Origin: Bacteroidaceae bacterium
Lineage (GTDB): Bacteria > Bacteroidota > Bacteroidia > Bacteroidales > Bacteroidaceae
DNA length: 58,697 nucleotides
Direction of reading: 5' to 3'
NCBI GenBank assembly: GCA_017448965.1
Contig: JAFSKK010000056.1
Location: 1 to 58,697 of the forward strand
Part shown: piece by piece, positions 5,191 to 53,797 of the stretch
Layout of the letters: every line of letters starts with the position of its first letter
Position numbering within the stretch: the first letter of the stretch is position 1
Notes under the pieces: generated by a model
Told to the model about the DNA's origin: nothing
Seen by the model: the letters and a program-made list of their open reading frames with translations, nothing else
The model's database searches: none
Made by a program: the position numbers and the translations under genes

Positions 5191-5261
5191 TTTTCTTGTG
5201 AAAAATAGGGCAATTTTCATAATAAAACTTAATGTAATGCTGATAATTGAAAAAAAAGTAG

Positions 5262-5269
5262 TATCTTTG
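5262..5269 (+). promoter_or_regulatory. -7 box of MORN gene (TATCTTTG)
   Basis: TATCTTTG 42 bases before the ATG at 5312. Confidence 0.6.
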
Positions 5270-5311
5270 TGGAGTGAAATTTTAAATGACTTAAAAGAAG
5301 AAGTATAATAT

Positions 5312-6433
5312 ATGAATTTTTCAAGATGTATGATGGTGGGCGCGATGATGCTGCTTGGTGTGTCGGTGAGTGCCCAGAAAGTGACGATTGGCAACTATGT
5401 CTTCACGAAGGAGAAGGCAACATATTATGGTGAACTGGAGGGTGGAAAGCCGCATGGAAAGGGCAAGACGACCTTCCAGAATGGCGACACTTATGAGGGT
5501 GAGTATGTGAAGGGAAAGAGACAGGGTGAGGGTGTGTACACATTCACCGATGGTGAGAAGTATGAGGGCAGTTGGCACCTTGACCATCAGCATGGACATG
5601 GTACCTATTATTTTGCCAATAACAACAAGTATGATGGCCTCTGGAACAAGGACTATCAGGAGGGTTTGGGCACGATGTACTACTACAACGGTGACAAGTA
5701 TGTGGGCGAATGGTTTCAGGACAAGCGCAACGGAAAGGGTCGCTACACGTGGGCAAACGGCATCTTCTACGATGGTGGTTGGAAAGATGACAAGAAGTCG
5801 GGTCATGGTATTTTTGACTGGCGCGACGGTTCGCGTTATGATGGCATGATGGATAACGACATGCGCAACGGAAATGGCAAGTACACGTATGCCAATGGTG
5901 ATGTATATACAGGTGGCTGGAAGGATGACCTGATGCACGGTAGGGGCATCTATAAGTTCAAGAACGGTGATACGTATGATGGCGAATATCAGAACGGCGA
6001 ACGCACGGGTCAGGGTATATTCACATACGCCGACAAGCGCCGCTATGTGGGTCACTTCAAGAATGGCTATATGGACGGCTTCGGAACATTCTATTGGCCT
6101 GATGGCTCGAAGTATGAGGGCTATTGGGTGGAAGACCGTGAGCATGGTACAGGTAAGTTCATCACGGCGAAGGGTGACACGTATGACGGGCAGTGGGCTG
6201 CTGGAGAGATGAATGGTGAGGGTGTGCTGCGTCTGGCTGACGGAACGAGGTTCAGAGGCCACTTCAAGGATGGCATGAAGAACGGAAAAGGTGTGGAGGA
6301 GACTCCTGATGGTGTGCGTTTCGAGGGTTCTTTCTTCAACGACCAGAGGGATGGCTCGTTTGTGGAGAAAGACCGCAACGGCAACGTGATCCGCAAGGGA
6401 ATTTATAACCGTGGTAAGTTGATGGGAGAGTGA
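5312..6433 (+). CDS. Exported MORN-repeat protein
   Basis: A 373-residue protein with a signal peptide (about residues 1-22, ending SVSAQ). After it come about fourteen consecutive MORN repeats of about 23 residues, each of the form Y-x-G-x-W/E ... G-x-G-x(4)-x-G-D, starting near YYGELEGGKPHGKGK (about 35) and running almost to the C-terminus. MORN repeats form an elongated beta-hairpin solenoid used for protein or lipid contact. No enzymatic domain is fused. The protein is expected in the periplasm or on the surface. The role is unknown. Confidence 0.88.
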   Translation: MNFSRCMMVGAMMLLGVSVSAQKVTIGNYVFTKEKATYYGELEGGKPHGKGKTTFQNGDTYEGEYVKGKRQGEGVYTFTDGEKYEGSWHLDHQHGHGTYYFANNNKYDGLWNKDYQEGLGTMYYYNGDKYVGEWFQDKRNGKGRYTWANGIFYDGGWKDDKKSGHGIFDWRDGSRYDGMMDNDMRNGNGKYTYANGDVYTGGWKDDLMHGRGIYKFKNGDTYDGEYQNGERTGQGIFTYADKRRYVGHFKNGYMDGFGTFYWPDGSKYEGYWVEDREHGTGKFITAKGDTYDGQWAAGEMNGEGVLRLADGTRFRGHFKDGMKNGKGVEETPDGVRFEGSFFNDQRDGSFVEKDRNGNVIRKGIYNRGKLMGE

Positions 6434-41362: not shown

Positions 41363-43186
41363 ATGGCAAAGTTACCACGCATTGATATTATCGACACGAT
41401 AGGTCGAAAATATCAAGTAGAGAATATTGAAAATGGAGAATTTAGTTATCAACAAGTTATTGAGCGTCACATTGTGGGACATTATAAACTTGACATCCGA
41501 TTTTATAATGAGTCTCAAAAAGTTGCAGTTCTTGTTGAGACTAAAGACAAAAAATTCAAGCAAAGTGATGTTGAACAACTTTTTGATTACGTCAAATTAG
41601 AGCAAGAACTTTCAAGCGTTACTAAAATTATTGCTATTTTAGCAGGAACGCATGATGGTTCACTGCGAGTTTGGAAAATTCTCAATGATGAAAACGAGGA
41701 ATTGAGTGATGCTAAATTAAAATCATTTGAGGAATACAGCTCTTACTTTATCAAACGTAACGTAAATGACAAAACCAGAGTTCTAGAAAACACTGCCGCT
41801 CTAAACAGAATCCTTCATGATAATGGCATTCAGGAAGGGTTGCGCAGTCAATTTGTGGGGACATGTTTACTAGCGCTCAAGGAAGGATTAGTATATAAAA
41901 GACTTTCCACCCCACAAATTTTGGCAGGAATCAAAGTAGCTCTGGGAAATCTACTACAGGATAGTGTTGATAAAGCTAACAAAATATCCATACTCGATAC
42001 AAAAGTTTTACAAGATAAAAATGTATTAAATATTGAGTCGGAAAATTTTAGCAAGTTGTTAGACTTTATTAAAGAGAAAATTTTACCCTATATTAATGAA
42101 GCAAGCACAGAAGGTCATGATATTTTGAGCTATTTCTTTACCACATTCAATAAATATGTTCAAAAAGGAGATAAAAATCAAGCCTTTACCCCTAACCATA
42201 TTGCTCACTTTATGTGCAAAGTGGGGCACATAACTCGCAACACCGTTGTTCTTGACCCAACTTGTGGGAGCGGCACTTTTTTAGTACAGGCTATGTCACA
42301 AGCTCTTGCAAAATGCGAAACTGACACAGAACGTCGGCATGTAAAAGAGAAACAAATATACGGAATTGAAGTTGATGAGAAAGTGTATGGATTAGCAACT
42401 ACAAACATGCTAATACATGGGGATGGTAATTCCAATATTTATTGGGGGTCTTGTTTCGACGAGAAGGATACAGGAGATAAGAAAGATATATGGAAGTTGA
42501 TTAAGGACTCTCAGAACAAAGACAAAAGGAAAGGGAAAGAGGAAGATGTAAAATTTGACCTCGTTTTAATGAATCCTCCATATAATGCAAGCAAAACTCA
42601 AGTAGACAAATCTTATGCAATGACTTGGGGGAAATCTTCGACTGATCCATCAAAAGGGCTTCATTTTGTGGAACATGTGGCAAATGTGGTTAAAACGGGA
42701 AGGCTTATCACTCTTTTGCCTATGCAGGCAGCAATAGGTGATAAAGGTATTATTGCACAAATAAAAAGATCTTTATTGGAAAAGCACACTCTTGATGCGG
42801 TATTCTCCTTCCCAACAGAAATGTTCTACCCTGGTGCTAGTGCTGTTGCTTGCTGTATGGTTTTTGACTTAGGGAAACCACATAAGGATACGGATCGTGA
42901 TACTTTTTTTGGATACTATAGGAATGATGGCTTTGAAAAAAGAAAGGGTGTGGGACGTGTGGACATAAAAGATCGTTGGGAAAAAATAGAAGAACAATGG
43001 CTCAGTCTTTATGAACATCGTTCAACCCAAGCAGGTCTTTGTGTAACCCACAAAGTATCATATCAAAATGAATGGTGCGCAGAAGCTTATATGAAGACTG
43101 ATTTCAGTACTCTTTGCGATGAAGACTTTATTAATAACATGAAGGACTATGCAGCCTTTGTCGTACTAAACGAAAGAAAAAAATAA
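41363..43186 (+). CDS. BcgI-like bifunctional restriction-methylation subunit
   Basis: A 607-residue protein joining an N-terminal nuclease domain and an N6-adenine methyltransferase. The nuclease motif is Asp44 with Glu59-x-Lys61 in VLVETKD. The methylase has LDPTCGSGTFLV (297-308, AdoMet site) and NPPY (404-407, catalytic). A helical region lies between (about 140-280). The pairing with a specificity subunit that overlaps by one base (TAATG) matches BcgI-type systems, where cutting and methylation sit in one chain. The gene is clearly A/T-richer than its neighbours, which suggests transfer. A type I HsdM with an unusual N-terminal domain is the alternative. Confidence 0.82.
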   Translation: MAKLPRIDIIDTIGRKYQVENIENGEFSYQQVIERHIVGHYKLDIRFYNESQKVAVLVETKDKKFKQSDVEQLFDYVKLEQELSSVTKIIAILAGTHDGSLRVWKILNDENEELSDAKLKSFEEYSSYFIKRNVNDKTRVLENTAALNRILHDNGIQEGLRSQFVGTCLLALKEGLVYKRLSTPQILAGIKVALGNLLQDSVDKANKISILDTKVLQDKNVLNIESENFSKLLDFIKEKILPYINEASTEGHDILSYFFTTFNKYVQKGDKNQAFTPNHIAHFMCKVGHITRNTVVLDPTCGSGTFLVQAMSQALAKCETDTERRHVKEKQIYGIEVDEKVYGLATTNMLIHGDGNSNIYWGSCFDEKDTGDKKDIWKLIKDSQNKDKRKGKEEDVKFDLVLMNPPYNASKTQVDKSYAMTWGKSSTDPSKGLHFVEHVANVVKTGRLITLLPMQAAIGDKGIIAQIKRSLLEKHTLDAVFSFPTEMFYPGASAVACCMVFDLGKPHKDTDRDTFFGYYRNDGFEKRKGVGRVDIKDRWEKIEEQWLSLYEHRSTQAGLCVTHKVSYQNEWCAEAYMKTDFSTLCDEDFINNMKDYAAFVVLNERKK

Positions 43187-44232
43187 TGGATATTAGGAAC
43201 TGGAGATATTTTACGATGGAAGAGCTTTTTAGCTCGTTCGAGAGAGGTAAAGTACATTCCCAAAGCAATCTCCCTGATGGTAATGATTATCTTTATATTG
43301 GCGCCAAAAAGGAAAGATGCGGCATTATGACTAAATGTGGCTATGATAAAGGGATTATAAGTAAGGGGAATTGTATTGTTTTTATTTGCAATGGAGAAGG
43401 TTCTGTAGGCTATAGTAATTATATGGATAGAGATTTCATGGCTTCAGGCGATTTAATTCTAGCATACGCAGACTTTCTAAATCCATATACAGCTCTTTTT
43501 ATAACTACATTGTTAGATAAAGAAAGACCCAAATATTCTTTTGGAAGGAAATATGGTAAGTATGTAAAAAATACAGCAATACCATTACCAATTTCCGATG
43601 ATGGAACCTCTCCTGATTGGGAAAGGATTACGAAATATGTTAAAAAACATTTGGTCAACGAACTGCCAAAACTCGCAATGAATGTGTGGAAGAACACATA
43701 TAATAGAGCGCCAGTTAAGAATGGTAAAGTGCTATTGTCTGAGAGAGAATGGAAATCTAAGCGAATAGAAGATATTTGCGAAGAACCATATAAGGCAAAG
43801 GCCTACAATGCTATTGAATTGCAACCATGCTCGTCCAATGCGAGGGACTCTATACCGTATATAACAAGAACTGAAGAAAACAATGGATGCAAATTTTATG
43901 TTCAAAAGTCAAATGAGATAACAAGCTTTGAAAGAGGGAATGCCATAACAATAGGTGACACAACTGCCACTATTAATTATCAGGCAAAAGACTTTATTTG
44001 TGGCGATCATATGGTTATATTAAGATCCAATCATCTTAATAAATACACAGGTTTATTTATTGTTACTCTGCTTAATAAGGAACGTTTTCGTTATAATTAT
44101 GGGAGAGCATTCAGCATGGATATAATTAAGAAGACCGAGCTACCATTGCCTATTATTCCCAATACAGATAATGTAGACTGGCAGTTTGTGGAAGATTATA
44201 TGAAGAGTTTGCCATATTCAGCTAACATCTAA
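43186..44232 (+). CDS. Restriction system specificity subunit (BcgIB-like)
   Basis: A 348-residue protein with two target-recognition modules of similar plan. The first (about 5-150) contains FLNPYTALFITTLLDKERPKYSFGR..., the second (about 185-345) LNKYTGLFIVTLLNKERFRYNYGR..., so the halves are internal repeats as in HsdS and BcgIB. It should dictate the DNA sequence recognised by the fused nuclease-methylase encoded one base upstream. The target sequence cannot be predicted from here. Confidence 0.85.
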   Translation: MDIRNWRYFTMEELFSSFERGKVHSQSNLPDGNDYLYIGAKKERCGIMTKCGYDKGIISKGNCIVFICNGEGSVGYSNYMDRDFMASGDLILAYADFLNPYTALFITTLLDKERPKYSFGRKYGKYVKNTAIPLPISDDGTSPDWERITKYVKKHLVNELPKLAMNVWKNTYNRAPVKNGKVLLSEREWKSKRIEDICEEPYKAKAYNAIELQPCSSNARDSIPYITRTEENNGCKFYVQKSNEITSFERGNAITIGDTTATINYQAKDFICGDHMVILRSNHLNKYTGLFIVTLLNKERFRYNYGRAFSMDIIKKTELPLPIIPNTDNVDWQFVEDYMKSLPYSANI

Positions 44233-44249
44233 AAAGAAGAAAACATCAA

Positions 44250-44693
44250 ATGGATAATAAACAACTGAATATAGTTTTGAGTGATATTCGAGCAATCATT
44301 GATTGTTTGAATCTGATTGCTGAGAAAGAAGGAAAGCAGTTAGCTCTTTGGGTAAATCAGAAGATTTTTATGGCAGACATATATGCTACGAACATGTCAT
44401 TGGTGAAGGAGTGTAAGGAATGTTTAGAATTCATTGCCGAGTCTCTGCCAAAGTTCCAGCCTGATTACAAAGAGGTGAAGGTGTTAGGTTATAATCCACG
44501 AAAGTTCCAAAGTAAGTTAGATTTGCAAAAATACAGGAAGGAGATGAAGAAGGTACGAGATTGTATTGATTTTTACGCATGGGAGTCCAATTTAGTATTA
44601 AGGATGACTAATGCTGATACAAACTCTGCTTTAATCGATGAGTGTAGTAAGAAATTAACACAAGCTAATTCGGCATTATATAAAATCAAATAA
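44250..44693 (+). CDS. Helical protein co-encoded with the restriction system, unrecognised
   Basis: A 147-residue soluble, mostly helical protein (MDNKQLNIVLSDIRAIIDCL at the start), 17 bases after the specificity gene on the same strand and equally A/T-rich. No family was recognised. It could be a third component, an inhibitor, or an unrelated passenger of the same island. Confidence 0.55.
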   Translation: MDNKQLNIVLSDIRAIIDCLNLIAEKEGKQLALWVNQKIFMADIYATNMSLVKECKECLEFIAESLPKFQPDYKEVKVLGYNPRKFQSKLDLQKYRKEMKKVRDCIDFYAWESNLVLRMTNADTNSALIDECSKKLTQANSALYKIK

Positions 44694-44911
44694 GGACCTA
44701 TAATAGTTGTGCCCGACACGAATTAGAGGTGAAAAGTGAAAATGAAAAGTTGAACATGAAGGAAGCAGAAATAAGAATGGGGACACTATTTGTCCCCATA
44801 ATGGCCGTAGGCAGTGAGTATGTCCACATGAACAACTTTAAGAAATACAACTAAAGTATAACGCTAATGCAGGACATTAACATTGACTTATTCTGCAAAT
44901 GCTGTTAAATT

Positions 44912-45079
44912 CAAATAAAAAAGGGAGCGGGAGGCTCCACTTTCGTGGTACACCCCCCGCATGTAAGCTTGAACCCTTCCCTCCTAAGATCCAATTAGGC
45001 GCGGTATTCAAGCCCTAAAATTGAGTTTACGCCTCCGCGATGCTCGCTCCGTAGAGTTGGCTCAATCCATAATGGATTT
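44912..45079 (-). ncRNA. Structured non-coding RNA with own promoter and terminator (6S/Bacteroidales-1-like candidate)
   Basis: On the minus strand a TACCTTTG box (45084-45091) is followed by ~165 bases without a credible ORF. The 5' hairpin is AATCCA/TGGATT (45078-45064). GGAGCG and GGAGGC (45050-45045, 45036-45031) pair with CGCTCC and GCCTCC right at the 3' end (44929-44924, 44935-44930). Inside, GTAA/TTAC and GCTTGAA/TTCAAGC form the next stem, capped by a CCTAA/TTAGG hairpin. A CCAC-GAAA-GTGG hairpin precedes the T-tract (44923-44912). The 3' end can also fold into a terminator with GCGGGGGGT. The layout (paired ends, long irregular hairpin, promoter and terminator at the borders) recalls 6S RNA and the Bacteroidales-1 RNA; identity is inference. 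Confidence 0.65.
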
Positions 45080-45083
45080 GGTG

Positions 45084-45091
45084 CAAAGGTA
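45084..45091 (-). promoter_or_regulatory. -7 box of the ncRNA (TACCTTTG)
   Basis: TACCTTTG followed by CACC on the minus strand. The sequence around it closely resembles the toxin-antitoxin promoter at 45789-45796. Confidence 0.65.
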
Positions 45092-45180
45092 GTACATTAT
45101 TAAATAACAACAAAATAAAAGGAAATATTTTTATGAGACAATCTGATATTAAGGATTTTCAGAAGGTTATTTGTAGACAG

Positions 45181-45510
45181 CTAAAGGTTGCGAATAATCT
45201 GATTGATGTAGCGTTCAGAAACATTCTGTATTTCCTTCTTGTCATAGATGGTAAGCAGGTTGACACACGTGTCGGTCGCTTCAATGACCACATTGAGCGT
45301 GATGACCCTGAGACCGCCGCGCTTGCCGCCACCCTTGCTCTTGACACCAAGACGGATCTTCCGCTTGCCGCCACCAAGAGAATCGCCAATGTTGGGATTC
45401 TGCATCAAATCATGTTGCAAGTCGTCAATATCGTCAGCCAGCGAACGGTAGCGTTTTGCCAGTCGCTTTGCCTGACGCAAAAACTCTTCTGTATAGTTGA
45501 AGGTTACCAT
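45181..45510 (-). CDS. RelE/ParE-superfamily toxin
   Basis: A 109-residue protein with the RelE-like fold pattern: N-terminal FNYTEEFLRQAKRLAKRYRSL helix pair, middle KIRLGVKSKGGGKRGGLRVIT strands with many basic residues, and C-terminal LLTIYDKKEIQNVSE. Such toxins cleave mRNA at the ribosome or inhibit gyrase. It lies 6 bases behind its probable antitoxin. Whether it is RelE-, HigB- or ParE-like in mechanism cannot be told. Confidence 0.82.
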   Translation of the reverse strand: MVTFNYTEEFLRQAKRLAKRYRSLADDIDDLQHDLMQNPNIGDSLGGGKRKIRLGVKSKGGGKRGGLRVITLNVVIEATDTCVNLLTIYDKKEIQNVSERYINQIIRNL

Positions 45511-45516
45511 TGTCTG

Positions 45517-45762
45517 TTAAGCTTCGGCTTTCAACTCTTTGACCAATGCGTCAAGCGATGTGAGATTTCGGCCGGCAAATCGCCCTTCCTTAGCTTCGCT
45601 GAAGCCACGAGTAATCGTATCTGCGATAAAGGTCTTCTCACTCTCCGCCTCAGACTGGTGGGTGACTAACTTGTCAATCGTCACTCCCTTGATTGCTGCA
45701 AAGATTTGCTTCAGACTTGGGACGAGACTGGCATCTTCTATGTTCAATACTATCTGTGTCAT
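45517..45762 (-). CDS. Antitoxin of the RelE-like pair
   Basis: An 81-residue acidic protein starting MTQIVLNIEDASLVPSLKQI, with a DNA-binding-type N-terminus and a C-terminal helical region that would cover the toxin. The family label is not certain, but the arrangement (antitoxin first, 6-base gap, small basic toxin next) is classical. Promoter at 45789-45796. Confidence 0.72.
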   Translation of the reverse strand: MTQIVLNIEDASLVPSLKQIFAAIKGVTIDKLVTHQSEAESEKTFIADTITRGFSEAKEGRFAGRNLTSLDALVKELKAEA

Positions 45763-45788
45763 GACTCATTGAGTTTTGTTTCAGAATG

Positions 45789-45796
45789 CAAAGGTA
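45789..45796 (-). promoter_or_regulatory. -7 box of the toxin-antitoxin operon (TACCTTTG)
   Basis: TACCTTTG followed by CATTC on the minus strand, 27 bases before the antitoxin start. Confidence 0.65.
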
Positions 45797-45862
45797 GTGC
45801 ATAATTAAATAAAAAACCAAATATTCTATCAGAAATATTCAATAAAACCAATTTTCAATATT

Positions 45863-46063
45863 ATGGCAAGGTCCGAAGTAACTGATTTTGAGAAGTTGTT
45901 TGAGAGTTTGGAACGTTTGGGGTGGGAACCTATGGTGTGCGACACTCCTATGACGTTCTATGACAATGAGGTGCCGTGCGGTGTGCCGAACGGTGTGGGT
46001 GATGTGGTGAAGGAGGAGCAGATGGTGCCAAGAAGCTTCAGGGACAGGGAACTTGGTTCATGA
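45863..46063 (+). pseudogene. Truncated S24 peptidase (LexA/UmuD-like) remnant
   Basis: The 66-residue frame aligns with the N-terminus of the intact S24 protein at 46596: LERLGWEPMVCDTPMTFYDN against LQKAGANPQLCDTEVPYFEA, then CGVPNG against AGLPTE and VPRSF against LPRKM. It stops just where the catalytic domain should begin, so no Ser/Lys dyad is present. It is most simply a duplicated, truncated copy. Confidence 0.6.
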
Positions 46064-46197
46064 TTAAGGTCTACTTATGGTTCAGAGTTCAGGGTTAATG
46101 GTTAAACTCAAACCATAACCATAACGGAAGTTGAAAATTGAAAATTGAAAATAGGAAAAATGAAAAAATCAGCAACTGCGGAATGACGAAGTTTGCA

Positions 46198-46262
46198 TTA
46201 GATAACCCAGTCTTCGATGGTGATGCCTTCCAGGTGCTGGTGTCGAGCATGTATCCTTTCAT
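46198..46262 (-). pseudogene. Internally deleted PIN-domain toxin (VapC-like) remnant
   Basis: The ATG (46262) overlaps the antitoxin stop as ATGA. The frame opens MKGYMLDTS, the usual first strand of a PIN toxin. Soon after, a different frame reads HLEGITIEDWVI and stops at 46198, the usual last strand of such toxins. About 100 residues that should lie between are absent. Thus only the two ends of the toxin gene remain. Confidence 0.6.
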
Positions 46263-46522
46263 AGCTCGACATCAAAGTGGTTGGAGGTTCGCATGCTGCG
46301 AATGTCATTGACAATTTCTTCTGCGGAGCGGCTGTCTTTCCATGCACCACAGAAACGATCTGCCCAATGGGATGACGGGCTGGATTGTTCGCTGCGCGTC
46401 ATGGAACTGCTGAGCAAGGTGATGAGTTCCAACTTGACGCTATCGCTGAGGTCTTTCAGCTCAGACCAATACCGTGCGCTGGCAAATGATGGGGATGGCA
46501 GAACGCTTGTGTTCATATTCAT
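46259..46522 (-). CDS. Antitoxin of the lost PIN toxin
   Basis: An 87-residue protein starting MNMNTSVLPSPSFASARYWS, with a helix LKDLSDSVKLELITLLSSSM and the C-terminal WADRFCGAWKDSRSAEEIVND typical of Bacteroidales antitoxins paired with PIN toxins (the second half is the toxin-binding strand). The ATGA overlap with the toxin remnant supports the pairing. It is intact as far as visible. Promoter: TAAATTTG at 46541-46548. Confidence 0.65.
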   Translation of the reverse strand: MNMNTSVLPSPSFASARYWSELKDLSDSVKLELITLLSSSMTRSEQSSPSSHWADRFCGAWKDSRSAEEIVNDIRSMRTSNHFDVEL

Positions 46523-46540
46523 TTCTTTTTATTTTCGGTG

Positions 46541-46548
46541 CAAATTTA
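46541..46548 (-). promoter_or_regulatory. -7 box of the orphan antitoxin (TAAATTTG)
   Basis: TAAATTTG followed by C on the minus strand, 18 bases before the start. Confidence 0.5.
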
Positions 46549-46595
46549 GGTATTAATTTTGAAAAACAAGAAAAAAGAAATAAAATATTGTGATT

Positions 46596-47462
46596 ATGGA
46601 TGAGAAAGAACTGAAGGAGATTTTCCTATTCTTGCAGAAGGCTGGGGCGAACCCTCAGCTGTGTGATACGGAGGTGCCTTATTTTGAGGCATCGGTGAGA
46701 GCAGGCTTGCCTACGGAGAACTGGGCGGAGGAGGCTTTTGTGGAGATGATGTCGCTGCCGAGGAAGATGTTGGCATCGACTCCTGCGATGATATTGGATG
46801 TGAACGGGGATTCGATGGAGGATGCCAATCTGTATGATGGCGACAGGGTGCTGGTGCTGATGACGCAGCGGTTTCACGATGGTGACATCGTGGTGGTGCG
46901 GATTGACGATTGCTACACGGTGAAGTGCTTCTATGAGGACGATGAGGGCAAGCATTGGCTGGTGGCTCAGAATAAGGAGAAGGAGGATGAGTATCGTCCT
47001 ATTCTGCTGGAGGAGCAGGAGAATGTGCAGGTGTATGGTGTGGTGGCGTTTGTGATGAGGAGCGAGCTTCGTGTGCCGACTCGCAACCTCCGAAGACTGG
47101 TGAGCAGGGAGAAGGAGGAGAGAAGGAAGAATGAGGCTGTGCCTGAATGGAAGGTGAGGAGAGCTGTCAGGGAGATTGCAGAGGAGATTGAGGTGAACAG
47201 GTTGTGGTTTGCTGTATATCGAAAGATGACGGAGTTGGGTGTGGTGGATGATGGCGATGTGAAAGGCTTTTGCGATATGGTGAAGGAGGAAGTGCCGAAT
47301 CATGGGCACTTGCCTGTGGTGGATGATTTGCAAAGACTGGATGTGTTGAGCTTCACGAAAGCTGTGGTGCTGTGGGATGAGAATGATGCGCCTGTGAAGG
47401 GCAAGCGATTCAAATTGTATAAGGAAATCGCCCAAAAGACGGAATTGCTGCTATTGAAGTAA
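46596..47462 (+). CDS. S24 family peptidase (LexA/UmuD-like) with extra C-terminal domain
   Basis: A 288-residue protein. After an N-terminal segment of ~50 residues comes the S24 self-cleaving peptidase fold: nucleophile Ser in VNGDSMEDANLYDGD (about residue 72) and general-base Lys in CYTVKCFYEDD (about 108). The last ~130 residues (from about 165) are a basic helical region not typical of UmuD or LexA. No N-terminal helix-turn-helix is evident. It may sense DNA damage or control the mobile module downstream. The frame offers an earlier GTG at 46590. A truncated relative lies at 45863. Confidence 0.8.
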   Translation: MDEKELKEIFLFLQKAGANPQLCDTEVPYFEASVRAGLPTENWAEEAFVEMMSLPRKMLASTPAMILDVNGDSMEDANLYDGDRVLVLMTQRFHDGDIVVVRIDDCYTVKCFYEDDEGKHWLVAQNKEKEDEYRPILLEEQENVQVYGVVAFVMRSELRVPTRNLRRLVSREKEERRKNEAVPEWKVRRAVREIAEEIEVNRLWFAVYRKMTELGVVDDGDVKGFCDMVKEEVPNHGHLPVVDDLQRLDVLSFTKAVVLWDENDAPVKGKRFKLYKEIAQKTELLLLK

Positions 47463-47469
47463 TTGGTCA

Positions 47470-47635
47470 AAAAGGGCGAAACTTTACGGAGAAATTGGTC
47501 AAAAACCGTAAAACTTTACGGAAAAGAGGCAAAAACTTTCAGAAACTTTACGGAAAAAGGGGCAATTTCGAGAAAAACTTTCAGAAACACCTGCTGAAAG
47601 GGTAAGATTTTCAGAAAAACTTTCAGAAACTTTAC
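47470..47635 (+). repeat. Array of short AAACTTTACGG / AAACTTTCAGAAA repeats
   Basis: Directly after the S24 stop, the decamers AAACTTTACGG (four times) and AACTTTCAGAAA (three times) alternate at irregular spacing with GGTCAAAAA stretches. The array ends in the terminator at 47636. With that terminator and the promoter it fills the 325 bases between the S24 gene and the next gene. Confidence 0.7.
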
Positions 47636-47667
47636 GGCGATGGAAAAAAAATCCATCGCCTTTTTTT
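47636..47667 (+). terminator. Terminator of the S24 gene
   Basis: A 9-bp stem (47636-47644 with 47652-47660) with seven T residues following. Confidence 0.9.
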
Positions 47668-47674
47668 ATGTCTG

Positions 47675-47682
47675 TACCTTTG
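47675..47682 (+). promoter_or_regulatory. -7 box of the VirE_N/DUF3987 module (TACCTTTG)
   Basis: TACCTTTG followed by C, 8 bases after the preceding T-run and about 105 bases before the ATG at 47788. The leader contains CTTGCAAG and GGAACTTCGCTCGC. Confidence 0.65.
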
Positions 47683-47787
47683 CATCGTCAATAGTGACAC
47701 ACAACCTTTGAGTGGAGGTGTCGGAGGTCTTGCAAGACTTGGGTGGCCACCCTTTCGGAACTTCGCTCGCTAAAACTCAAAACAATT

Positions 47788-48189
47788 ATGACTAAAAAAC
47801 AGAAACAGCAGCATGGCTGCGGTGACGTGAGGATGGATGCCGAGGTGGCTTATTTCATCAACGGGAATGTGGGGATCAACCCTTGTGGTGAACCTGCTAA
47901 CTTGCCGAACGGAAGGTGCGGACAGCGAAGGGGTTGCCTGAACTTGCAGAATGATGGTACGGGGTATTTCCGGGCATATCGCGAAAACACGGGCGAGAGG
48001 TATGAGAGCCTGATGGAAACGGCGAACGGAGGACTGATGAGGACTCGTCGCCCCAATAGACCGAGCAGGGCGAAACTGGTGGCGAAGCTGTCGTTCCCGA
48101 TTGGGATGGGAAGCGCAAGGCTGGTGGAGCAGCTGGTGGAACAGGTGAACGAGATGGTGGGGTTTTTGAAAACGCGGGAAATTAGTTGA
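47788..48189 (+). CDS. Small protein of the mobile module, unrecognised
   Basis: A 133-residue soluble protein beginning MTKKQKQQHGCGDVRMDAEV. The first ~65 residues are Gly/Asn-rich with several Cys (HGCG, NPCGEP, GRCGQRRGC), and the second half is basic and helical (KLVAKLSFPIGMGSARLVEQL). The start at 47788 is chosen because the upstream residues of the open frame lie in the leader. The Cys pairs might bind metal, but no known domain was recognised. Confidence 0.5.
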   Translation: MTKKQKQQHGCGDVRMDAEVAYFINGNVGINPCGEPANLPNGRCGQRRGCLNLQNDGTGYFRAYRENTGERYESLMETANGGLMRTRRPNRPSRAKLVAKLSFPIGMGSARLVEQLVEQVNEMVGFLKTREIS

Positions 48190-48345
48190 AAATGGATTCT
48201 GCTCTCAACACCTTCGGTGTCTCGAAAAACGATAATTACCAATAATTGACAATAATTTTATCCAATAATTTTATCTGTGAAATCTGTGAAATCTGTGGTT
48301 CAGAAAAAATTAGTGATTAACAATTAAAAAAAGATTAGAAAGATT

Positions 48346-48648
48346 ATGAATATACAAGGTTTTATTAAGGAGATTGGACAGCCACGTTCGTGGCAGTCGA
48401 AGGAAGGGAACACCATGAATTCGTACCCCATCGTGGTGGAAGTGCCTTTCATCGGGAAGGACGGAAAGGAACGTGCTGACGAGTTGATTGCAGATCACGT
48501 GATTGGCAACGATGAGTATCTGGCGAAGTTGCAGGAGGCAAAACAGAACCGGCAACGGCTGGAGTTCTCGATCGGGTTCAACGTGAGGGAGTGGCAGGGG
48601 AAGAAGTTCCAGAATGCCAAGATGTTTAACGTGCAAATCATGATGTGA
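48346..48648 (+). CDS. Small protein, possibly OB-fold-like, unrecognised
   Basis: A 100-residue protein, MNIQGFIKEIGQPRSWQSKE onward, with alternating strands (YPIVVEVPFIGKDG, LEFSIGFNVREWQGKKFQN) that resemble short single-stranded-DNA-binding (DUF3127-like) proteins. The resemblance is weak. It sits before the VirE_N/DUF3987 gene on the same strand, behind a ~150-base A/T-rich gap. Confidence 0.5.
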   Translation: MNIQGFIKEIGQPRSWQSKEGNTMNSYPIVVEVPFIGKDGKERADELIADHVIGNDEYLAKLQEAKQNRQRLEFSIGFNVREWQGKKFQNAKMFNVQIMM

Positions 48649-48735
48649 GTTTTATGTCTAAGGAATTTAGGAACTAAGGAACTCGATGCACAGCATCGAC
48701 AATAAATCCCAAATTGGCTACGCCGAGCTAAAGGT

Positions 48736-48862
48736 TCTGTGATTTGACTTCGTCGAGCTAAAGGTTCTGTGTTTTCTGTGTGAGATAAGAAGAGAGCCAT
48801 GCGGGCTCTCGCAGAAAAACTTCATTTCACACAGAAATCACGGAAAACACAGAAAGACACCG
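48736..48862. repeat. Palindromic repeat family 2, copy B (inverted)
   Basis: The reverse complement of 38553-38678 with a handful of differences; the same GAGAGCCATGCGGGCTCTC hairpin lies in the middle. It sits just before the VirE_N/DUF3987 gene. Confidence 0.85.
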
Positions 48863-48934
48863 TGAGCGGTGTTGGAAAACACAGAAAAAGGGATTCAGGA
48901 ATTAGATTGATGTTACAATTGAAAATTAAAGGTT

Positions 48935-51346
48935 ATGATACTTGACGTATATAAAAACAAAAAGGCCATCAAGCCCATGACACGATTCAGGTCGTGGGCT
49001 GATGTGGTCAACTGGCTCGACTACCACAAGGAGGTGGCGGTCAACTGCGCCAAAATCAAGGAGACGGGCGACAAGTCTTTCAAAGACAACCTCCCAGCCA
49101 TCATGCCGATGGGAACGGTGGGTGACTTGACCCGAAAGAAGGAGAACTGCACTCCAACAGGATTGGTCATGGTGGATATAGACCCCCCTTGCCCCCCTGT
49201 TGAGGGGGGAAAGGACCATGCGGGGTGTGCGGAGATAGAGAAGAGCCATGCGGAGTGGATGAAGGGTGTGAGCCAGCACTTTGAGGTAAGGAAGGAGGCG
49301 ATGGAAAGGATGGGCGTTCGTCTGGTGCATGTCACGCCATCGGGCTGGGGATTGCGACTGCTGGTGTGTTGCCATGCGGAGGGCATGGAAGCGACTATCG
49401 GGCATTGTGTGGAGGCACTGGAACTGGAGAAGTTCGGTCATGTTGACCCTGCTTGCAAAGACTTGTCTCGTCTGTCCTTCATGGTGCCTCTTGATTATGT
49501 GATTTATCAGGAAGGCTTGTTCGATGAGGTTCCCGCAGTCAGCATTGAGGCGATGAAGAAGTACCAGAGTACGGGTGTGTATGCTCCATCGTCCAATCAG
49601 CAAGCAGACTTGGGAGAGGTGGATGCCAACGACATGAAGTACAAGGATTTCGAGTACAACGGTTTCCGTGTGGCTGACATCGTGGATGACTACCTCAAGG
49701 AGACAGGCGGTGAACCGCAAGAGGGCATGAGGCACACGGTGTACAACGAGATGATTGTGTTGTTCCGCAACCTCTGCAACAACGACCCAAAAATCGTTCA
49801 TGCGGTGCTGCCTACATTCAATCAGCCGACGGAGGAAACTTGGAAACAATGTGTGAGCCTCTGTTCCAACAACCGCACCACAAAGTTGGATTCTCGTCTG
49901 TACTTCTGGCTGAAGAATAAGGGGATGCTTGCCCCTCGTGTTCCTGTCACGAATGAGGAAGAACAGGCGGAGGAGCCATTGCCGCCCATGCCGAAGTTGC
50001 CGCCCATCTTCAGGCAGTATGTGAATGCGGCTCCTGATGATTTCAAGATTCCGACGGTGGTGGCATTGCTGCCCATCTTGGGAACGTTGACGAGCCATGT
50101 GAGAGCGGAGTATTTTGATGGCACGGAGCAATCGACGGAGTTCATCTCGTTGCTGTTCGCGCCGCCATCATCGGGAAAGTCGTTCATCAAGCGGCTGTCT
50201 AAATTGCTGCAGAACTTGCGAGACAGGGATGAACTCTCTAACGCAAGGGAGGAGATCTATGCGAATCGTGAGCGCAAGAAAGGGGCAAACGATAAGGGCG
50301 AAGAGATGCCGAAAGTGAGTGTCCGCATCGTGAAGCCGCTGATTTCCATTCCTGAGTTGCTGACGAAGATGCGGAACAACAAAGGGCATCACATGTACAT
50401 TGAGGCAGAAGAACTCGACACCTTCAACAAGGGCAACAAGACTGCTGGAGGCGACAAATCCGACTTGTGGCGCGTGACTTGGGATAATGGCTACTACGGT
50501 CAGTATTACAAGAGCGTGAACACGTTTAAGGGCGAGGTGCAGATGTTTCTCAACCTGCTGTTCACATCGACGCAAGACCAGATTGACCGCTTCTTCAAGA
50601 ACATAGAGGACGGCTTGGTGACCCGCTTCTCCGTCTGCCCCATCGAGAATCAGCAGTATGCGCAGTTCAAGCCTTGGAAGCCCATTCCGCTGAAGGAAAA
50701 GCTGCAAGTGCAGAACATCCTGAACAAGCTGGAGATGAAGAACTACAAGCTGCCCTTGAAGTTCGACAAGAGCGAACTGATGGACATTGAAGAGGCAGAC
50801 TTCGACAGCGTCGTTCCTTGGCAATACGAGTTCCAGCCCTTCGAGCACATCGACCTCAGTTGGCTGTACAAGCCTCTCCTTGATTGGCTCGAAAAGGAGC
50901 GCGTGAAAAGTGCTGAAACGCTCAATGAGGCTCGTGACGTGTTCCGAAGGAGAGCAGCCGTGAAGGGTTTCCGATTGGGTTTGCTGTGCTGTGCGCTGTA
51001 TAATAAAATCACGAAGACGGAACGAGAGGTGATCACGAAGTTCGTGTTGTGGTTCTGCAGCATTGACTTGCGAAACTCGCTGAACCAGTTTGGAGAACGG
51101 TATAACGAGTTGCAGCAGACTTCTCATAAGAAGGCGTTCAATTGGGAAGGCATCTTCTACAAGCTGGGAGAGACGTTCGCAAAGAATGATGTGAGTGTCG
51201 CATTGAAACGTGCCTTCATCAAATCCACTGCCACACAAGTGATCTACCTTTGGAAGAAGAATGGGCTGATTGAGAAAAATGGAGAGAATCAATTTATCAA
51301 AACCGCAAAAACCAAGCAAAGTAATGGAAAAAATCGTGTTAAATAA
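48935..51346 (+). CDS. BT4734-type VirE_N / DUF3987 protein
   Basis: An 803-residue protein of the BT4734/BF3469 family. The VirE N-terminal domain covers about residues 45-210 (GTVGDLTRKKENCTPTGLVM, VTPSGWGLRLLV, DPACKDLSRLSF). A linker follows, then the DUF3987 ATPase-like domain from about 355 with Walker A APPSSGKS at 409-416 and an acidic YIEAEELDTF. Such proteins are frequent in Bacteroidales mobile or phage-like loci and resemble primase-helicases, but their role is unproven. Residues ~82-96 (DIDPPCPPVEGGKDHAG) contain an in-frame copy of a C-rich hairpin repeat, see 49178-49212. Its 3' end overlaps the next small gene. Confidence 0.88.
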   Translation: MILDVYKNKKAIKPMTRFRSWADVVNWLDYHKEVAVNCAKIKETGDKSFKDNLPAIMPMGTVGDLTRKKENCTPTGLVMVDIDPPCPPVEGGKDHAGCAEIEKSHAEWMKGVSQHFEVRKEAMERMGVRLVHVTPSGWGLRLLVCCHAEGMEATIGHCVEALELEKFGHVDPACKDLSRLSFMVPLDYVIYQEGLFDEVPAVSIEAMKKYQSTGVYAPSSNQQADLGEVDANDMKYKDFEYNGFRVADIVDDYLKETGGEPQEGMRHTVYNEMIVLFRNLCNNDPKIVHAVLPTFNQPTEETWKQCVSLCSNNRTTKLDSRLYFWLKNKGMLAPRVPVTNEEEQAEEPLPPMPKLPPIFRQYVNAAPDDFKIPTVVALLPILGTLTSHVRAEYFDGTEQSTEFISLLFAPPSSGKSFIKRLSKLLQNLRDRDELSNAREEIYANRERKKGANDKGEEMPKVSVRIVKPLISIPELLTKMRNNKGHHMYIEAEELDTFNKGNKTAGGDKSDLWRVTWDNGYYGQYYKSVNTFKGEVQMFLNLLFTSTQDQIDRFFKNIEDGLVTRFSVCPIENQQYAQFKPWKPIPLKEKLQVQNILNKLEMKNYKLPLKFDKSELMDIEEADFDSVVPWQYEFQPFEHIDLSWLYKPLLDWLEKERVKSAETLNEARDVFRRRAAVKGFRLGLLCCALYNKITKTEREVITKFVLWFCSIDLRNSLNQFGERYNELQQTSHKKAFNWEGIFYKLGETFAKNDVSVALKRAFIKSTATQVIYLWKKNGLIEKNGENQFIKTAKTKQSNGKNRVK
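49178..49212. repeat. C-rich hairpin repeat inserted in the coding frame
   Basis: TTGCCCCCCTGTTGAGGGGG, a 6-bp hairpin related in style to the CTCCCCTAAACAGGGGAG units at 37780-37870. It lies in the VirE_N domain and adds residues PPCPPVEGGK without breaking the frame. Confidence 0.6.
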
Positions 51347-51467
51347 AGAAGAAAAGCAGGCATTGTTCTCGCTTTTGAGAGAGGTACTGAAACTGTTTGT
51401 TCAGGACATCATTGAAGTAATCAAAGAAAAGAGGGAGGAAAAGAAGAATGGCAAAAAAAGTAAATAA
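51324..51467 (+). CDS. Tiny charged protein between VirE_N gene and lysis-type gene
   Basis: A 47-residue ORF (MEKIVLNKEEKQALFSLLRE...) overlapping the VirE_N gene by 23 bases and the next gene by 20 bases. It is a single amphipathic helix followed by a Lys/Glu-rich tail. The overlap at both ends is typical of coupled genes in a compact module. I do not recognise it. Confidence 0.55.
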   Translation: MEKIVLNKEEKQALFSLLREVLKLFVQDIIEVIKEKREEKKNGKKSK

Positions 51468-51900
51468 ACTACCGAGAGGGTTGCGCAACTGCAACCCGCT
51501 CAACATCCGATACGTGAAGGGTAACACATGGCTGGGCTGCATGGGCAGCGATGGCGCTTTCTGCAAGTTCATCACCATGAAATATGGTCTCCGTGCCGCC
51601 TTCAAGCTGCTGTCCATCTATCAAACCAAGCATGGCAAACTCTCGATTGCCAGCATCATCAAGCGATGGGCACCCGAGAACGAGAATAACACCATTCACT
51701 ACATCAAGCGGGTATGTAATTACATGGGAGCTAAACCAAACGATGTGTTTCTGTTTGGCGAGGTGGTGGACAAGGAGATGTGCTGCAAGATGGTGGCAGC
51801 GATGGCGTTGGTGGAGAATGGTGAAGACAGATTGACCACTCAACAGATCCATGAAGCGTGGGATTTTACGTTTGGGGAGAAAGGAGGGCGCCATGATTGA
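51448..51900 (+). CDS. Phage structural protein P5-like / muramidase-like protein
   Basis: A 150-residue protein with the signature NCNPLNIRYVKGNTWLGCMG near the start, then FCKFITMKYGLRAAFKLL, LSIASIIKRWAPENENNTIHYIKRV and ALVENGED, the pattern of the P5/muramidase-like family that is often annotated as phage structural protein. Probably peptidoglycan-directed. No signal peptide. The stop overlaps the next start by 8 bases (ATGATTGA). Confidence 0.8.
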   Translation: MAKKVNKLPRGLRNCNPLNIRYVKGNTWLGCMGSDGAFCKFITMKYGLRAAFKLLSIYQTKHGKLSIASIIKRWAPENENNTIHYIKRVCNYMGAKPNDVFLFGEVVDKEMCCKMVAAMALVENGEDRLTTQQIHEAWDFTFGEKGGRHD

Positions 51901-52429
51901 GTTCGTGCTAACCAGAATGTTCTTCAACGACTGGGGCATTTTCGGTGAATTGAAAGAGATGACTTCGGGGTTCCGTTGTGCCACGTTTGAAAGATGCCCA
52001 CCGAAAGAATCGGACAATGCGTTCCAAAGAAGCCGGAAGGCGATGTTCTGCGGTCTTTATGAGATAGGAAATGAATACCTGCCATTGGAGAACAGAAACA
52101 CCTTCAAGGTGATGCGATTGGGCAAATACAACAAAGCCGTGTTCCAGTTGAACAAAATCCAAAACGTGGGCGACATCGTGTTGGCTCGAAGCTTTGACTG
52201 GTTCGGGCATCCATCGGACAGCAAAACCGTCATCAATGTACTTGACCGCTTCATCATGGAAAAGATGGCGATGGGAGAGTTGCCGACAAAAGCGAAAAGA
52301 GGGTACGCGGAATTGCTCATTACGGAGAGTCCTGAGTTCTGCAAAAGAAAGAGCAATGCGCCTCTCTCCAAAGAATCGTCGGATGATGGCATCGATTGGG
52401 ATATGATTGACAAGGATTTCCTTGAATGA
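51893..52429 (+). CDS. DUF5675-like protein
   Basis: A 178-residue protein. The N-terminal ~105 residues resemble the DUF5675 domain (FGELKEMTSGFRCATFERCP, YEIGNEYLPLENRNTFKVMR, VGDIVLARSFDW), a family often encoded beside phage-type lysis genes. The remainder is a charged tail. The start is fixed by an AAAGGAGG-type ribosome-binding site at about 51879-51888 and by the 8-base overlap with the gene before it. Last gene of the module. Confidence 0.65.
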   Translation: MIEFVLTRMFFNDWGIFGELKEMTSGFRCATFERCPPKESDNAFQRSRKAMFCGLYEIGNEYLPLENRNTFKVMRLGKYNKAVFQLNKIQNVGDIVLARSFDWFGHPSDSKTVINVLDRFIMEKMAMGELPTKAKRGYAELLITESPEFCKRKSNAPLSKESSDDGIDWDMIDKDFLE

Positions 52430-52614
52430 CATACTTTTTCGAATCAATTTCGTGTGTGCTCATGATTGTAGAAGGATGCCGTTGTGAAACGCCATCCTTT
52501 CTTTCTTTGTCAAAAAATAGAAAAATAGAAAAATCAAAAAATAGAATTATCGAAATCGGATGAGAAAATCGAGATTTTTGAGGGGGAAATGGTTGTTGTC
52601 TCAAATCTTTCAGT

Positions 52615-52622
52615 TATCTTTG
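52615..52622 (+). promoter_or_regulatory. -7 box of lipoprotein gene (TATCTTTG)
   Basis: TATCTTTG followed by C, 62 bases before the ATG at 52684. The preceding ~90 bases hold an A/T-rich run of AAAATAGAAAAAT repeats. Confidence 0.6.
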
Positions 52623-52683
52623 CAATTGAAAACCATTCGGAATGAATAATTATATTTACGAACCCTATAAAACCTGTATGATT

Positions 52684-53586
52684 ATGAAGAAATTAGCGAT
52701 TATTTTGCTGGGATGCTGTGTGTCCCTGATGTTGTGGAACTGCAAGGGCAAAAGCTCTGATGGTTCTTCGGATGTTGATAATGCCTTGGCTGAGAGAATG
52801 GGATTGAAGGAGGTGCCGAAGGTGGAGAAGTTTGTGGTGGTGACGGCGGATCAGACACCCGTGCTGAGGGAGCCAGCGAAGGGCAGTGCCATATTGGTGA
52901 ATTGCATGGAGGACATGGAGTCTGACATGGCGGATAGCAGGGTGCAGTGGAGCGACGAGAAGGTGCCGAGGGGGTATAGCAATAATGATTGGGATCGCTA
53001 TGCTGGCACGGTGCTGGCTGTGTTGGGCGAGGAAGGCGACTACTACAAGGTGAGTGTCAAGGATAGGGAGTGGTGCGACATCGAGTCGGGCTATGTGCTC
53101 AAATCGGATACGGAGGAGATGAAGCCTGAGGCGGTGACGGCTGAGTGGATTGAGACGTCTGCAGAACAGGCGTGGATGCCGACGGTCGTGAAAAAGGAAG
53201 GAAAGTACAAGGGGCTTGTGATACGTGTTGAGGTGAACGAATTGTGGGGAGAGGAGACGCTGTGGGTTGGTGTGCTGAAAGATGGTGTCATCTATTATCC
53301 GGATGGATTTGTCGGCCTCATTGCTGATTGTGATACAGCGGACGAACTGGTATTCCGTCCGGCTGGGTATGTGGATGATATTAATTTGCAGCTCCAGTAT
53401 CCGAAGTCGGTGTCTAAGTTGAACGAGTTTGGCGAGGTGATGAGCCTTGACCCTGCGAAATTGACCGACGAGCAGATTGAACAGATTTTGGAGGAACTGG
53501 GAAAGCGTCCTACTGAATATATAGGTTGTGAGTATTCCTTCCCGATGACGGAAGGTCAGACGGCTCTTTTCTGGCTGAAAAAGTGA
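52684..53586 (+). CDS. Lipoprotein, SH3-like region possible, unrecognised
   Basis: A 300-residue lipoprotein: signal peptide KKLAIILLGCCVSLMLWNC with the lipobox Cys near 20. A middle region of ~90 residues (VVVTADQTPVLREPAKGSAIL, YYKVSVKDREWCDIESGYVL) looks like a bacterial SH3-type domain, which often binds cell-wall peptide. The C-terminal ~130 residues are without known motif. I start at the ATG at 52684 because the 14 residues before it do not fit a signal peptide. Confidence 0.65.
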   Translation: MKKLAIILLGCCVSLMLWNCKGKSSDGSSDVDNALAERMGLKEVPKVEKFVVVTADQTPVLREPAKGSAILVNCMEDMESDMADSRVQWSDEKVPRGYSNNDWDRYAGTVLAVLGEEGDYYKVSVKDREWCDIESGYVLKSDTEEMKPEAVTAEWIETSAEQAWMPTVVKKEGKYKGLVIRVEVNELWGEETLWVGVLKDGVIYYPDGFVGLIADCDTADELVFRPAGYVDDINLQLQYPKSVSKLNEFGEVMSLDPAKLTDEQIEQILEELGKRPTEYIGCEYSFPMTEGQTALFWLKK

Positions 53587-53692
53587 GTGGAATGATGTCC
53601 GTTCACCTGCGTGAGGAAGGCTTTTTCGGGGAAACAAGTGTGCAGATGAGAAAAAATGTGTGATTTTGTTTGGCTGTTTCGCCGAATAGTCT

Positions 53693-53700
53693 TACCTTTG
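53693..53700 (+). promoter_or_regulatory. tRNA promoter (-33 TTTG, -7 TACCTTTG)
   Basis: TACCTTTG at 53693 with TTTG at 53669-53672, 20 bases upstream, close to the Bacteroidetes consensus. Confidence 0.75.
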
Positions 53701-53719
53701 TGCCCGAAAACAAGATGAT

Positions 53720-53797
53720 AGGGGCGTAGCCCAGCTGGTTTAGAGCGCTGCAGTCACATTGCAGAGGTCATCGGTTCGAACCCGATCGTCCCTACCA
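53720..53797 (+). tRNA. tRNA-Val(CAC)
   Basis: A cloverleaf can be drawn: acceptor AGGGGCG (53720-53726) with CGTCCCT (53787-53793, one G-U), anticodon stem CTGCA/TGCAG with loop GTCACAT and anticodon CAC (53755-53757), T-arm ATCGG-TTCGAAC-CCGAT (53770-53786). The CCA end is encoded (53795-53797). The D-stem has one apparent mismatch. Val (GTG codon) is read from the anticodon. Confidence 0.9.

What the first reader, a model, noticed from the sequence alone, without database searches (positions are those of the whole stretch)
44912..45091. Highly structured small RNA between the restriction island and a toxin-antitoxin operon
A consensus promoter, ~165 bases without a gene, nested compensating stems, and a terminator form a complete RNA gene. 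The 5' GGAGCG/GGAGGC pair with the extreme 3' end, giving a closed rod with a bulge, while the same 3' bases can form the terminator hairpin, so two exclusive folds exist. The layout recalls 6S RNA or the Bacteroidales-1 RNA, but the location in an accessory island next to a toxin-antitoxin operon is unexpected and an antisense or toxin-linked role is possible.
Basis: partly seen in the sequence, partly recalled or inferred. Interest (0 to 1): 0.72.

Follow-up and report, generated by a model that had tools for sequence, protein, structure and literature searches.

The report
Antidote RNA to phage-carried toxins
A short RNA gene in a gut-bacterium island appears to be built from two antidote modules, each the partner of a different nuclease-like toxin domain carried on phage head proteins, so the cell may be using RNA to disarm phage toxins that it does not itself make.

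Summary
The RNA gene is real, on the minus strand (about 44917-45080), with a Bacteroidota-type promoter and a terminator. It is not 6S or Bacteroidales-1 RNA (no Rfam match). It is modular: module B (44965-45015) and module A (44919-44965) recur elsewhere with compensatory base changes. In phages, A sits alone beside MuF head proteins with one C-terminal domain (D1; model matches a CdiA tRNase). B sits alone beside MuF proteins ending in LPD3 (weak match to CDI toxins). Two pairs of MuF proteins, 59% and 63% identical in their N-terminal part, differ in C-terminal domain, and the RNA differs with it. An antisense promoter motif follows 25 of 25 testable distinct D1/LPD3 genes but 2 of 91 other ORFs. 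D1 and LPD3 were not found in the window's genome (85.6% complete) nor in six of seven other genomes with module A. Best reading: an orphan immunity-RNA array against phage-carried nuclease toxins, working like a type III antitoxin but outside that family. Neutralisation is inferred, not shown.

The parts
45084..45091 (-). -7 promoter element TACCTTTG (TAnnTTTG); TTTG 19 nt upstream at 45111-45114
   Evidence: sequence; the same motif stands 38-44 nt before module A in the single-module copies L004, L007, L010, L012, L017
45016..45080 (-). 5' part of the transcript: hairpin AATCCATTATGGATT and an unassigned segment, possibly a third module
   Evidence: no shared 14-mer in other loci then held; folding z -0.7
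44965..45015 (-). module B, LPD3-type RNA: outer stem, internal loop UACCGCG / AGGGAAGGG, inner 5-bp stem with 7-nt loop UUGGAUC
   Evidence: model R1, built without the window, finds it at 63.5 bits, E 4.1e-15; 11 of 13 pairs with compensatory changes on 8 rows
44919..44965 (-). module A, D1-type RNA: long G-rich stem, internal loop, GAAA-capped stem
   Evidence: model R2, built without the window, finds it at 78 bits, E 1.8e-21; pair counts
44917..44938 (-). alternative hairpin GGAGC-CTCCC-GCTCC followed by TTTTTT: likely intrinsic terminator, exclusive with the long stem of module A
   Evidence: sequence

Best explanation
The RNA of about 165 nt is an orphan immunity-RNA array: a chromosomal transcript that joins at least two antidote modules of the kind found in phage toxin-immunity loci. 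In phages and prophages of Bacteroidota, nuclease-like domains are fused to the C-terminus of MuF head proteins, and a small RNA with its own promoter beside the gene neutralises each one. Module A is the antidote to domain D1, module B to LPD3. The RNA probably binds the nuclease as a substrate-like decoy, so that a lysogen, or here a host without the toxin genes, survives toxin made inside it or delivered with the phage. Shown here: the modules, their covariation, promoter and terminator motifs, linkage of RNA type to domain type, joint exchange in two pairs of MuF genes, and failure to find D1 and LPD3 in the window's genome. Inferred: that the domains are toxic, that the RNA is made, binds and neutralises them, that the array protects the host.
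For: (1) The window carries both modules: R1 E 4.1e-15, R2 E 1.8e-21, models built without it. (2) Covariation. B, 8 rows: 11 of 13 pairs changed on both sides; 0 of 500 shuffles on four of five measures, 26 of 500 on the fifth. LPD3-RNA inner stem, 16 rows: 80 of 80 cells paired, 5 of 5 pairs with compensatory change; 0 of 500 on three measures, 1 and 16 of 500 on the others. A, 11 distinct rows: 99.3% paired, 3 of 13 pairs; 0 of 500 on three measures, 3 and 68 of 500 on the others. (3) MuF-linked copies found by the models: A beside D1 in 5 of 5 distinct loci (L007, L010, L012, L013, L017), B beside LPD3 in 4 of 4 (L015, L018, L031, L033); over 49 loci R1 has no hit beside D1 and R2 none beside LPD3. 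(4) Joint exchange: P0002/P0005 59% identical over 314 N-terminal aa, P0003/P0006 63% over 356; C-terminal domain and RNA both differ. (5) Antisense TAnnTTTG within 130 nt of the stop: 25 of 25 testable distinct D1/LPD3 genes, 2 of 91 other open frames of 200 codons or more, Fisher p 2e-23. (6) D1 model: 4g6v CdiA-CT, E 1.2e-4, prob 1.00, the only hit at 1e-3 or better; a tRNA-Ala nuclease according to PMC9086364 (passages). LPD3 model: CDI toxins 7m5f (E 0.059, prob 0.90) and 6cp8 (E 0.21), weak. (7) Orphan state: no LPD3 and no D1 (best E 0.18) in the own genome; among seven other genomes with module A, D1 in one (that of L007), LPD3 in none.
Against: No expression, binding or toxicity data. 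Physical linkage alone could make C-terminal domain and RNA move together. In nearly all phage loci seen the RNA runs antisense to the end of the MuF gene, so a cis-antisense or terminator role is possible (against it: L010, where the RNA lies on the MuF strand, and the orphan copies). LPD3 has no structural hit at 1e-3 or better, and its five best by E are designed proteins. The own assembly is 85.6% complete, so a toxin could be in the missing part; completeness of the seven other genomes was not told. The more distant D1 relatives (L023, L026, L027/L028, L029, L052) have RNAs that R2 does not find. The A loci were found by an A pattern, so 5 of 5 carries ascertainment. Not all MuF relatives have such an RNA: 2 of 4 with other C-termini. 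The 5' third of the window RNA is unassigned. Module A also stands behind a tRNA-His (L005), an ORF (L003) and a HigBA-like pair (L016), where it might serve as a terminator.
Confidence: 0.64

Rival explanations
1. Cis regulator: in phages the RNA is an antisense transcript or two-way terminator that tunes the end of the MuF gene; orphan copies are leftovers of lost prophages.
For: In nearly all phage loci seen the RNA is convergent and its 3' end overlaps the end of the MuF gene.
Against: In L010 the RNA lies on the MuF strand with its own promoter. Window, L009 and L011 keep both module types in tandem with compensatory changes and no such MuF domain seen nearby. Other convergent frames in the same loci rarely have the promoter (2 of 91).
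Confidence: 0.14
2. A phage structural or packaging RNA (like phi29 pRNA, recalled) encoded among head genes, with host copies as remnants.
For: Position beside MuF, portal and terminase genes.
Against: RNA type follows the C-terminal domain, not the head part of MuF; MuF relatives L098 and L099 have no RNA promoter at that distance.
Confidence: 0.06
3. A host regulatory sRNA in which module A is just a mobile terminator and module B a regulatory hairpin, unrelated to toxins.
For: A ends many unlike transcripts: after a tRNA-His (L005), an ORF (L003), other hairpins (L006, L008).
Against: Conserved internal loops beyond what a terminator needs; recurrent D1 and LPD3 partners; only one copy in the own genome.
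Confidence: 0.1
4. The RNA serves the neighbouring RelE-like pair (45181-45762), as an extra RNA antitoxin or antisense RNA.
For: Adjacent and on the same strand in the window; L016 has module A behind a HigBA-like pair.
Against: Own promoter; the pair has an antitoxin ORF; I saw no such pair among the ORFs listed next to the other A or B copies (and ORFs, read by eye; not searched by profile).
Confidence: 0.06

Closest known systems
Type III toxin-antitoxin systems (ToxIN, CptIN, TenpIN)
   Same: A protein nuclease toxin paired with a small structured RNA that would neutralise it directly.
   Different: Here single hairpins rather than processed repeats; the RNA has its own promoter and lies beside the 3' end of the toxin gene; the toxin is a domain of a phage head protein; RNA modules of two types are joined in orphan arrays.
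MuF polymorphic toxins of temperate phages (PMC5576092; Bxa, PMC11699363)
   Same: MuF head protein with an exchangeable C-terminal domain and an adjacent candidate immunity gene. P0003 and P0006 match the Bxa profile phrog_16625 (2e-106, 1.7e-117), P0001 and P0004 more weakly.
   Different: The immunity described there is a protein (small ORF; Bsi and BAH for Bxa). Here an RNA gene takes that place.
CdiA-CT tRNase toxins with CdiI immunity proteins (e.g. 4G6V, 6CP8)
   Same: The D1 model matches 4g6v; the LPD3 model weakly matches CDI toxins including 6cp8.
   Different: Delivered by contact-dependent secretion and neutralised by proteins.
Orphan immunity gene clusters (acquired interbacterial defence of gut Bacteroidales; recalled)
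   Same: Immunity genes without their toxins gathered in an island, protecting a bystander.
   Different: Those are proteins against secreted effectors; these would be RNA modules within one transcript.

Membership tests
Type III toxin-antitoxin | RNA antitoxin of tandem repeats upstream of the toxin gene, with a terminator between (recalled) | tested here: not met
   single hairpins with their own promoter motif at the 3' end of the toxin-domain gene, nearly all convergent
Type III toxin-antitoxin | Toxin of the ToxN/CptN/TenpN families | tested here: not met
   no such Pfam match among P0001-P0006 up to E 0.1; P0005 and P0006 are LPD3, D1 has no Pfam family
Type III toxin-antitoxin | RNA binds and inhibits the toxin protein | not testable with these tools
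   needs binding and rescue assays
MuF polymorphic toxin-immunity system | MuF head domain with a variable C-terminal domain | tested here: met
   PHROG head-morphogenesis matches in all six proteins, weakest P0005 at 8e-4; N-termini 59% and 63% identical with different C-termini. Pfam MuF itself only below cut-off
MuF polymorphic toxin-immunity system | Adjacent gene that gives immunity | tested here: inconclusive
   a likely RNA gene is adjacent; immunity not shown
6S RNA / Bacteroidales-1 RNA | Match to the Rfam covariance model | tested here: not met
   no match up to E 10 at 44780-45200; gathering scan of the window gives only a tRNA
Orphan immunity array | Immunity modules without the cognate toxin in the genome | tested here: inconclusive
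   LPD3 not found, D1 best E 0.18, but the assembly is 85.6% complete; same outcome in six of seven other genomes with module A

The most novel reading that the evidence does not exclude
A new mode of immunity: Bacteroidota phages arm a head protein with tRNA-cleaving domains and pair each with a tRNA-mimicking decoy RNA. LPD3 RNAs show a 5-bp stem and a 7-nt loop, mostly UUG[UC]AGU, like an anticodon arm and one letter from the host's tRNA-His loop UUGUGGU. A RNAs show a G-rich stem with an invariant G-U pair, like the acceptor stem of tRNA-Ala (recalled), the substrate listed for the D1 model's best structural match. Bacteria collect these decoys into tandem RNA arrays that disarm several phage toxins at once.
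Probability: 0.33. Interest if true: 0.93.

Novelty: new variant of a known kind. Interest (0 to 1): 0.82.

Why it matters
If true, polymorphic toxins, described so far with protein immunity in the papers seen, also have RNA immunity, and hosts can gather RNA antidotes as compact modules. It would give a function to LPD3, explain small structured RNAs beside phage head genes, and offer a test bed for RNA decoys of nucleases. The predicted specificity (A for D1, B for LPD3) is directly testable.

Tried and rejected
Rfam naming: at the locus only a plus-strand STnc40 match at E 7.2 and nothing at gathering threshold; eight related loci gave a tRNA and a below-threshold RybB match in L008; 20 more loci gave one unrelated RT-3 RNA in L054. 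Repeated element (REP-like): rejected, a single copy in the own genome. Known phage or plasmid element: no blastn match (E up to 0.1) of the 180 bases in 50,697 phage and 72,556 plasmid records. The closed rod: not conserved.

Pair counting on A12 with a bracket string shifted by two columns gave 45.8% paired and is set aside; the inner stem counted on A7 gave 100%. tRNA mimicry stays a hypothesis: the place of the module A G-U pair looks like A-U in the related RNA of L023 (by eye, sequence), no tRNA-Ala was among the tRNAs read from the own assembly (40 of 48 tRNA loci), and the loop of the window's module B (UUGGAUC) is further from the tRNA-His loop. Model R3 (gut-type LPD3 RNA) hit 3 of 149 order genomes: one beside an LPD3 MuF gene (L108), one orphan (L107), one (L109, weakest) without promoter or strong hairpin and taken as chance. 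Of the ten loci of the last MuF scan, four (L102-L105) end inside the gene and were not examined.

Full report
What is there. The minus strand from about 45080 to 44917 looks like a small-RNA gene. A TAnnTTTG element (45091-45084) with TTTG 19 nt upstream fits the Bacteroidota promoter (consensus recalled), and the transcript would end in GGAGC-CTCCC-GCTCC followed by six T. No listed ORF of 60 aa or more overlaps it. Energy alone is unimpressive: z -1.65, 16 of 200 shuffles as good; z -2.18, 21 of 1000, for 162 nt. Rfam gives nothing up to E 10 except a plus-strand STnc40 match at E 7.2.

It is modular. An exact 20-mer from the 3' part occurs in 7 stretches of the genome collection and 4 of the viral collection, most from rumen Bacteroidales by their titles. 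Comparison showed two separate blocks: module A (44919-44965) and module B (44965-45015). In L004, L007, L010, L012 and L017 A stands 38-44 nt after a promoter motif. In L015 and L018 B stands without A. Window, L009 (two B) and L011 carry B followed by A; L006 and L008 carry other hairpins followed by A.

Both modules are conserved as RNA. On eight distinct B rows (window included) 11 of 13 pairs show changes on both sides and 89.4% of cells pair; none of 500 shuffles reaches the observed value on four of five measures, 26 of 500 on the fifth. The inner stem over 16 LPD3-type rows pairs in 80 of 80 cells with compensatory change at 5 of 5 pairs. For A, 13 rows (11 distinct, window excluded), 99.3% of cells pair and 3 of 13 pairs change on both sides; A varies little, so its covariation is modest. 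Models built without the window find it at E 4.1e-15 (B, the only match up to E 5) and 1.8e-21 (A, next match E 0.62).

The partners. In phage-like loci the modules lie directly beside the 3' end of a MuF-type head gene. MuF genes next to A share one C-terminal domain, called D1 here (four sequences, 50-71% identical to the first); those next to B alone end in Pfam LPD3 (1.7e-16 and 1.1e-11). P0002 (A) and P0005 (B) are 59% identical over 314 N-terminal residues, P0003 (A) and P0006 (B) 63% over 356, with no meaningful alignment of the C-terminal domains. So the head part stays while the toxin-like domain and the RNA differ together, twice.

Starting from the proteins instead. A scan of viral contigs with D1 gave 9 loci (L029 is distant), with LPD3 22 loci; phage records added 1 and 2. 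Beside the stop codon an RNA gene is again visible. Of distinct genes with 130 nt after the stop, 25 of 25 have an antisense TAnnTTTG there, against 2 of 91 other open frames of 200 codons or more in the same loci (frames are mechanical, some may be spurious; L022, L024 and L043 were not testable, repeats were dropped). Of 24 LPD3 loci 23 were testable (L043 ends 57 nt after the stop); 19 of 23 (16 of 18 distinct) have a 5-bp stem with a UUGNA-type 7-nt loop, the four others (L038/L039, L050/L051) a variant; 41 of 3320 random 135-nt windows of the loci have it. Over 49 loci R1 has no hit beside D1 and R2 none beside LPD3. R2 does not find the RNAs of the more distant D1 relatives. In L010 the RNA lies on the MuF strand (the D1 domain of that contig is in L024, at its other end), so antisense overlap is not essential.

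What the domains may be. The AlphaFold model of D1 (pLDDT 87.2) matches CdiA-CT of PDB 4g6v at E 1.2e-4, the only hit at 1e-3 or better; a review lists that toxin as a PD-(D/E)XK nuclease of tRNA-Ala (PMC9086364, passages). The LPD3 model (pLDDT 91.2) has no hit at 1e-3 or better; its five best by E are designed proteins, and its better biological matches are the CDI toxins 7m5f (E 0.059, prob 0.90) and 6cp8 and the 3hi2 toxin-antitoxin complex. 6cp8 is a BECR-fold tRNase by the same review. LPD1-40 were described as of elusive function (PMC5512222, passages). Active-site residues were not compared.

Orphans. LPD3 was not found in the window's genome and D1 only at E 0.18, at 85.6% completeness. 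Of seven other genomes with module A, D1 was found in one, that of L007, where the RNA is MuF-linked, and LPD3 in none. A six-frame profile search of the window and of L003-L006, L008, L009, L011 and L016 finds neither. L107 is an orphan LPD3-type RNA in a genome where LPD3 was not found. Module A or B patterns occur in 1 of 393 order genomes each, the own one; 1 of 60 relatives has A (G019, apparently the same record as L005). It is a rare, mobile thing.

Interpretation. A structured RNA whose type follows the toxin-like domain next to it, which changes with that domain, and which is also kept without it in tandem with another type, behaves like an immunity gene. MuF toxins are described with protein immunity: 89.4% of 191 are followed by a small ORF (PMC5576092, passages), and Bxa has two immunity proteins (PMC11699363, abstract and section 7). 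I found no RNA immunity in print: 'RNA antitoxin' with 'MuF' gave 3 papers, none on this topic by title and abstract; 'immunity RNA' with 'polymorphic toxin' none; the listings show none. The library lacks most subscription papers and all bioRxiv preprints.

A bolder step. The commonest LPD3-RNA loops, UUGUAGU (8) and UUGCAGU (6 of 17 counted), closed by A-U in most, are like an anticodon loop; UUGUAGU differs by one letter from the host's tRNA-His loop UUGUGGU, also closed by A-U. A has an invariant G-U pair in a G-C stem (11 of 11 distinct rows), as in the acceptor stem of tRNA-Ala (recalled). This would make the RNAs substrate mimics. It was noticed after the fact, and L023 appears to have A-U at that place, so it stays a hypothesis.

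More of the kind. A last scan with the MuF N-terminus gave 10 loci: one LPD3, one D1, four cut off, four with new C-termini. Of these four, L100 and L101 also have an antisense promoter motif and a foldable RNA, L098 and L099 do not at RNA distance; none of the four C-termini has a Pfam match up to E 0.01.

Noticed in passing
L100:1105-1767 (+) and L101:4530-5015 (+): MuF proteins with two further C-terminal domains, no Pfam match, each followed by an antisense promoter motif (128 and 67 nt from the stop) and a foldable RNA: perhaps more toxin-RNA pairs.
   Followed up: partly
L008 about 5212-5450 (-) and L006 about 6120-6253 (+): Longer RNAs without a D1 or LPD3 gene in the locus that share a first hairpin (GCGGAATGAG...CATTCTGC) and a GGGGGTGT block before module A: likely arrays with further module types.
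   Followed up: partly
L038 / L039, L042, L044: Two LPD3-type RNA hairpins after one LPD3 MuF gene: with separate promoter motifs in L038/L039 (the nearer one has a stem mismatch), in one predicted transcript in L042 and L044.
   Followed up: no
L016:3430-4162 (-): Module A directly behind a Gp49/HigB-like toxin and HTH antitoxin pair, without a promoter motif of its own; the window array also lies beside a RelE-like pair.
   Followed up: no
window 45181-45762 (-): RelE-like toxin (Pfam RelE E 1e-3, below cut-off) and an 81-aa antitoxin-like ORF without a Pfam match, with a TAnnTTTG motif near 45790.
   Followed up: partly
window 41363-53797: Accessory stretch: type I methylase and specificity genes, S24 peptidase, DUF3987/BT4734 protein, then a tRNA-Val at 53720.
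   Followed up: no
L054:3874-4021 (+): RT-3 RNA (Rfam RF03068, 153.8 bits) some 500 nt after an LPD3 MuF gene in a human faecal phage record.
   Followed up: no
L107 around 1490-1560: LPD3-type RNA with a promoter motif between an ABC-F-like gene and a transporter-like gene, in a genome where LPD3 was not found.
   Followed up: yes
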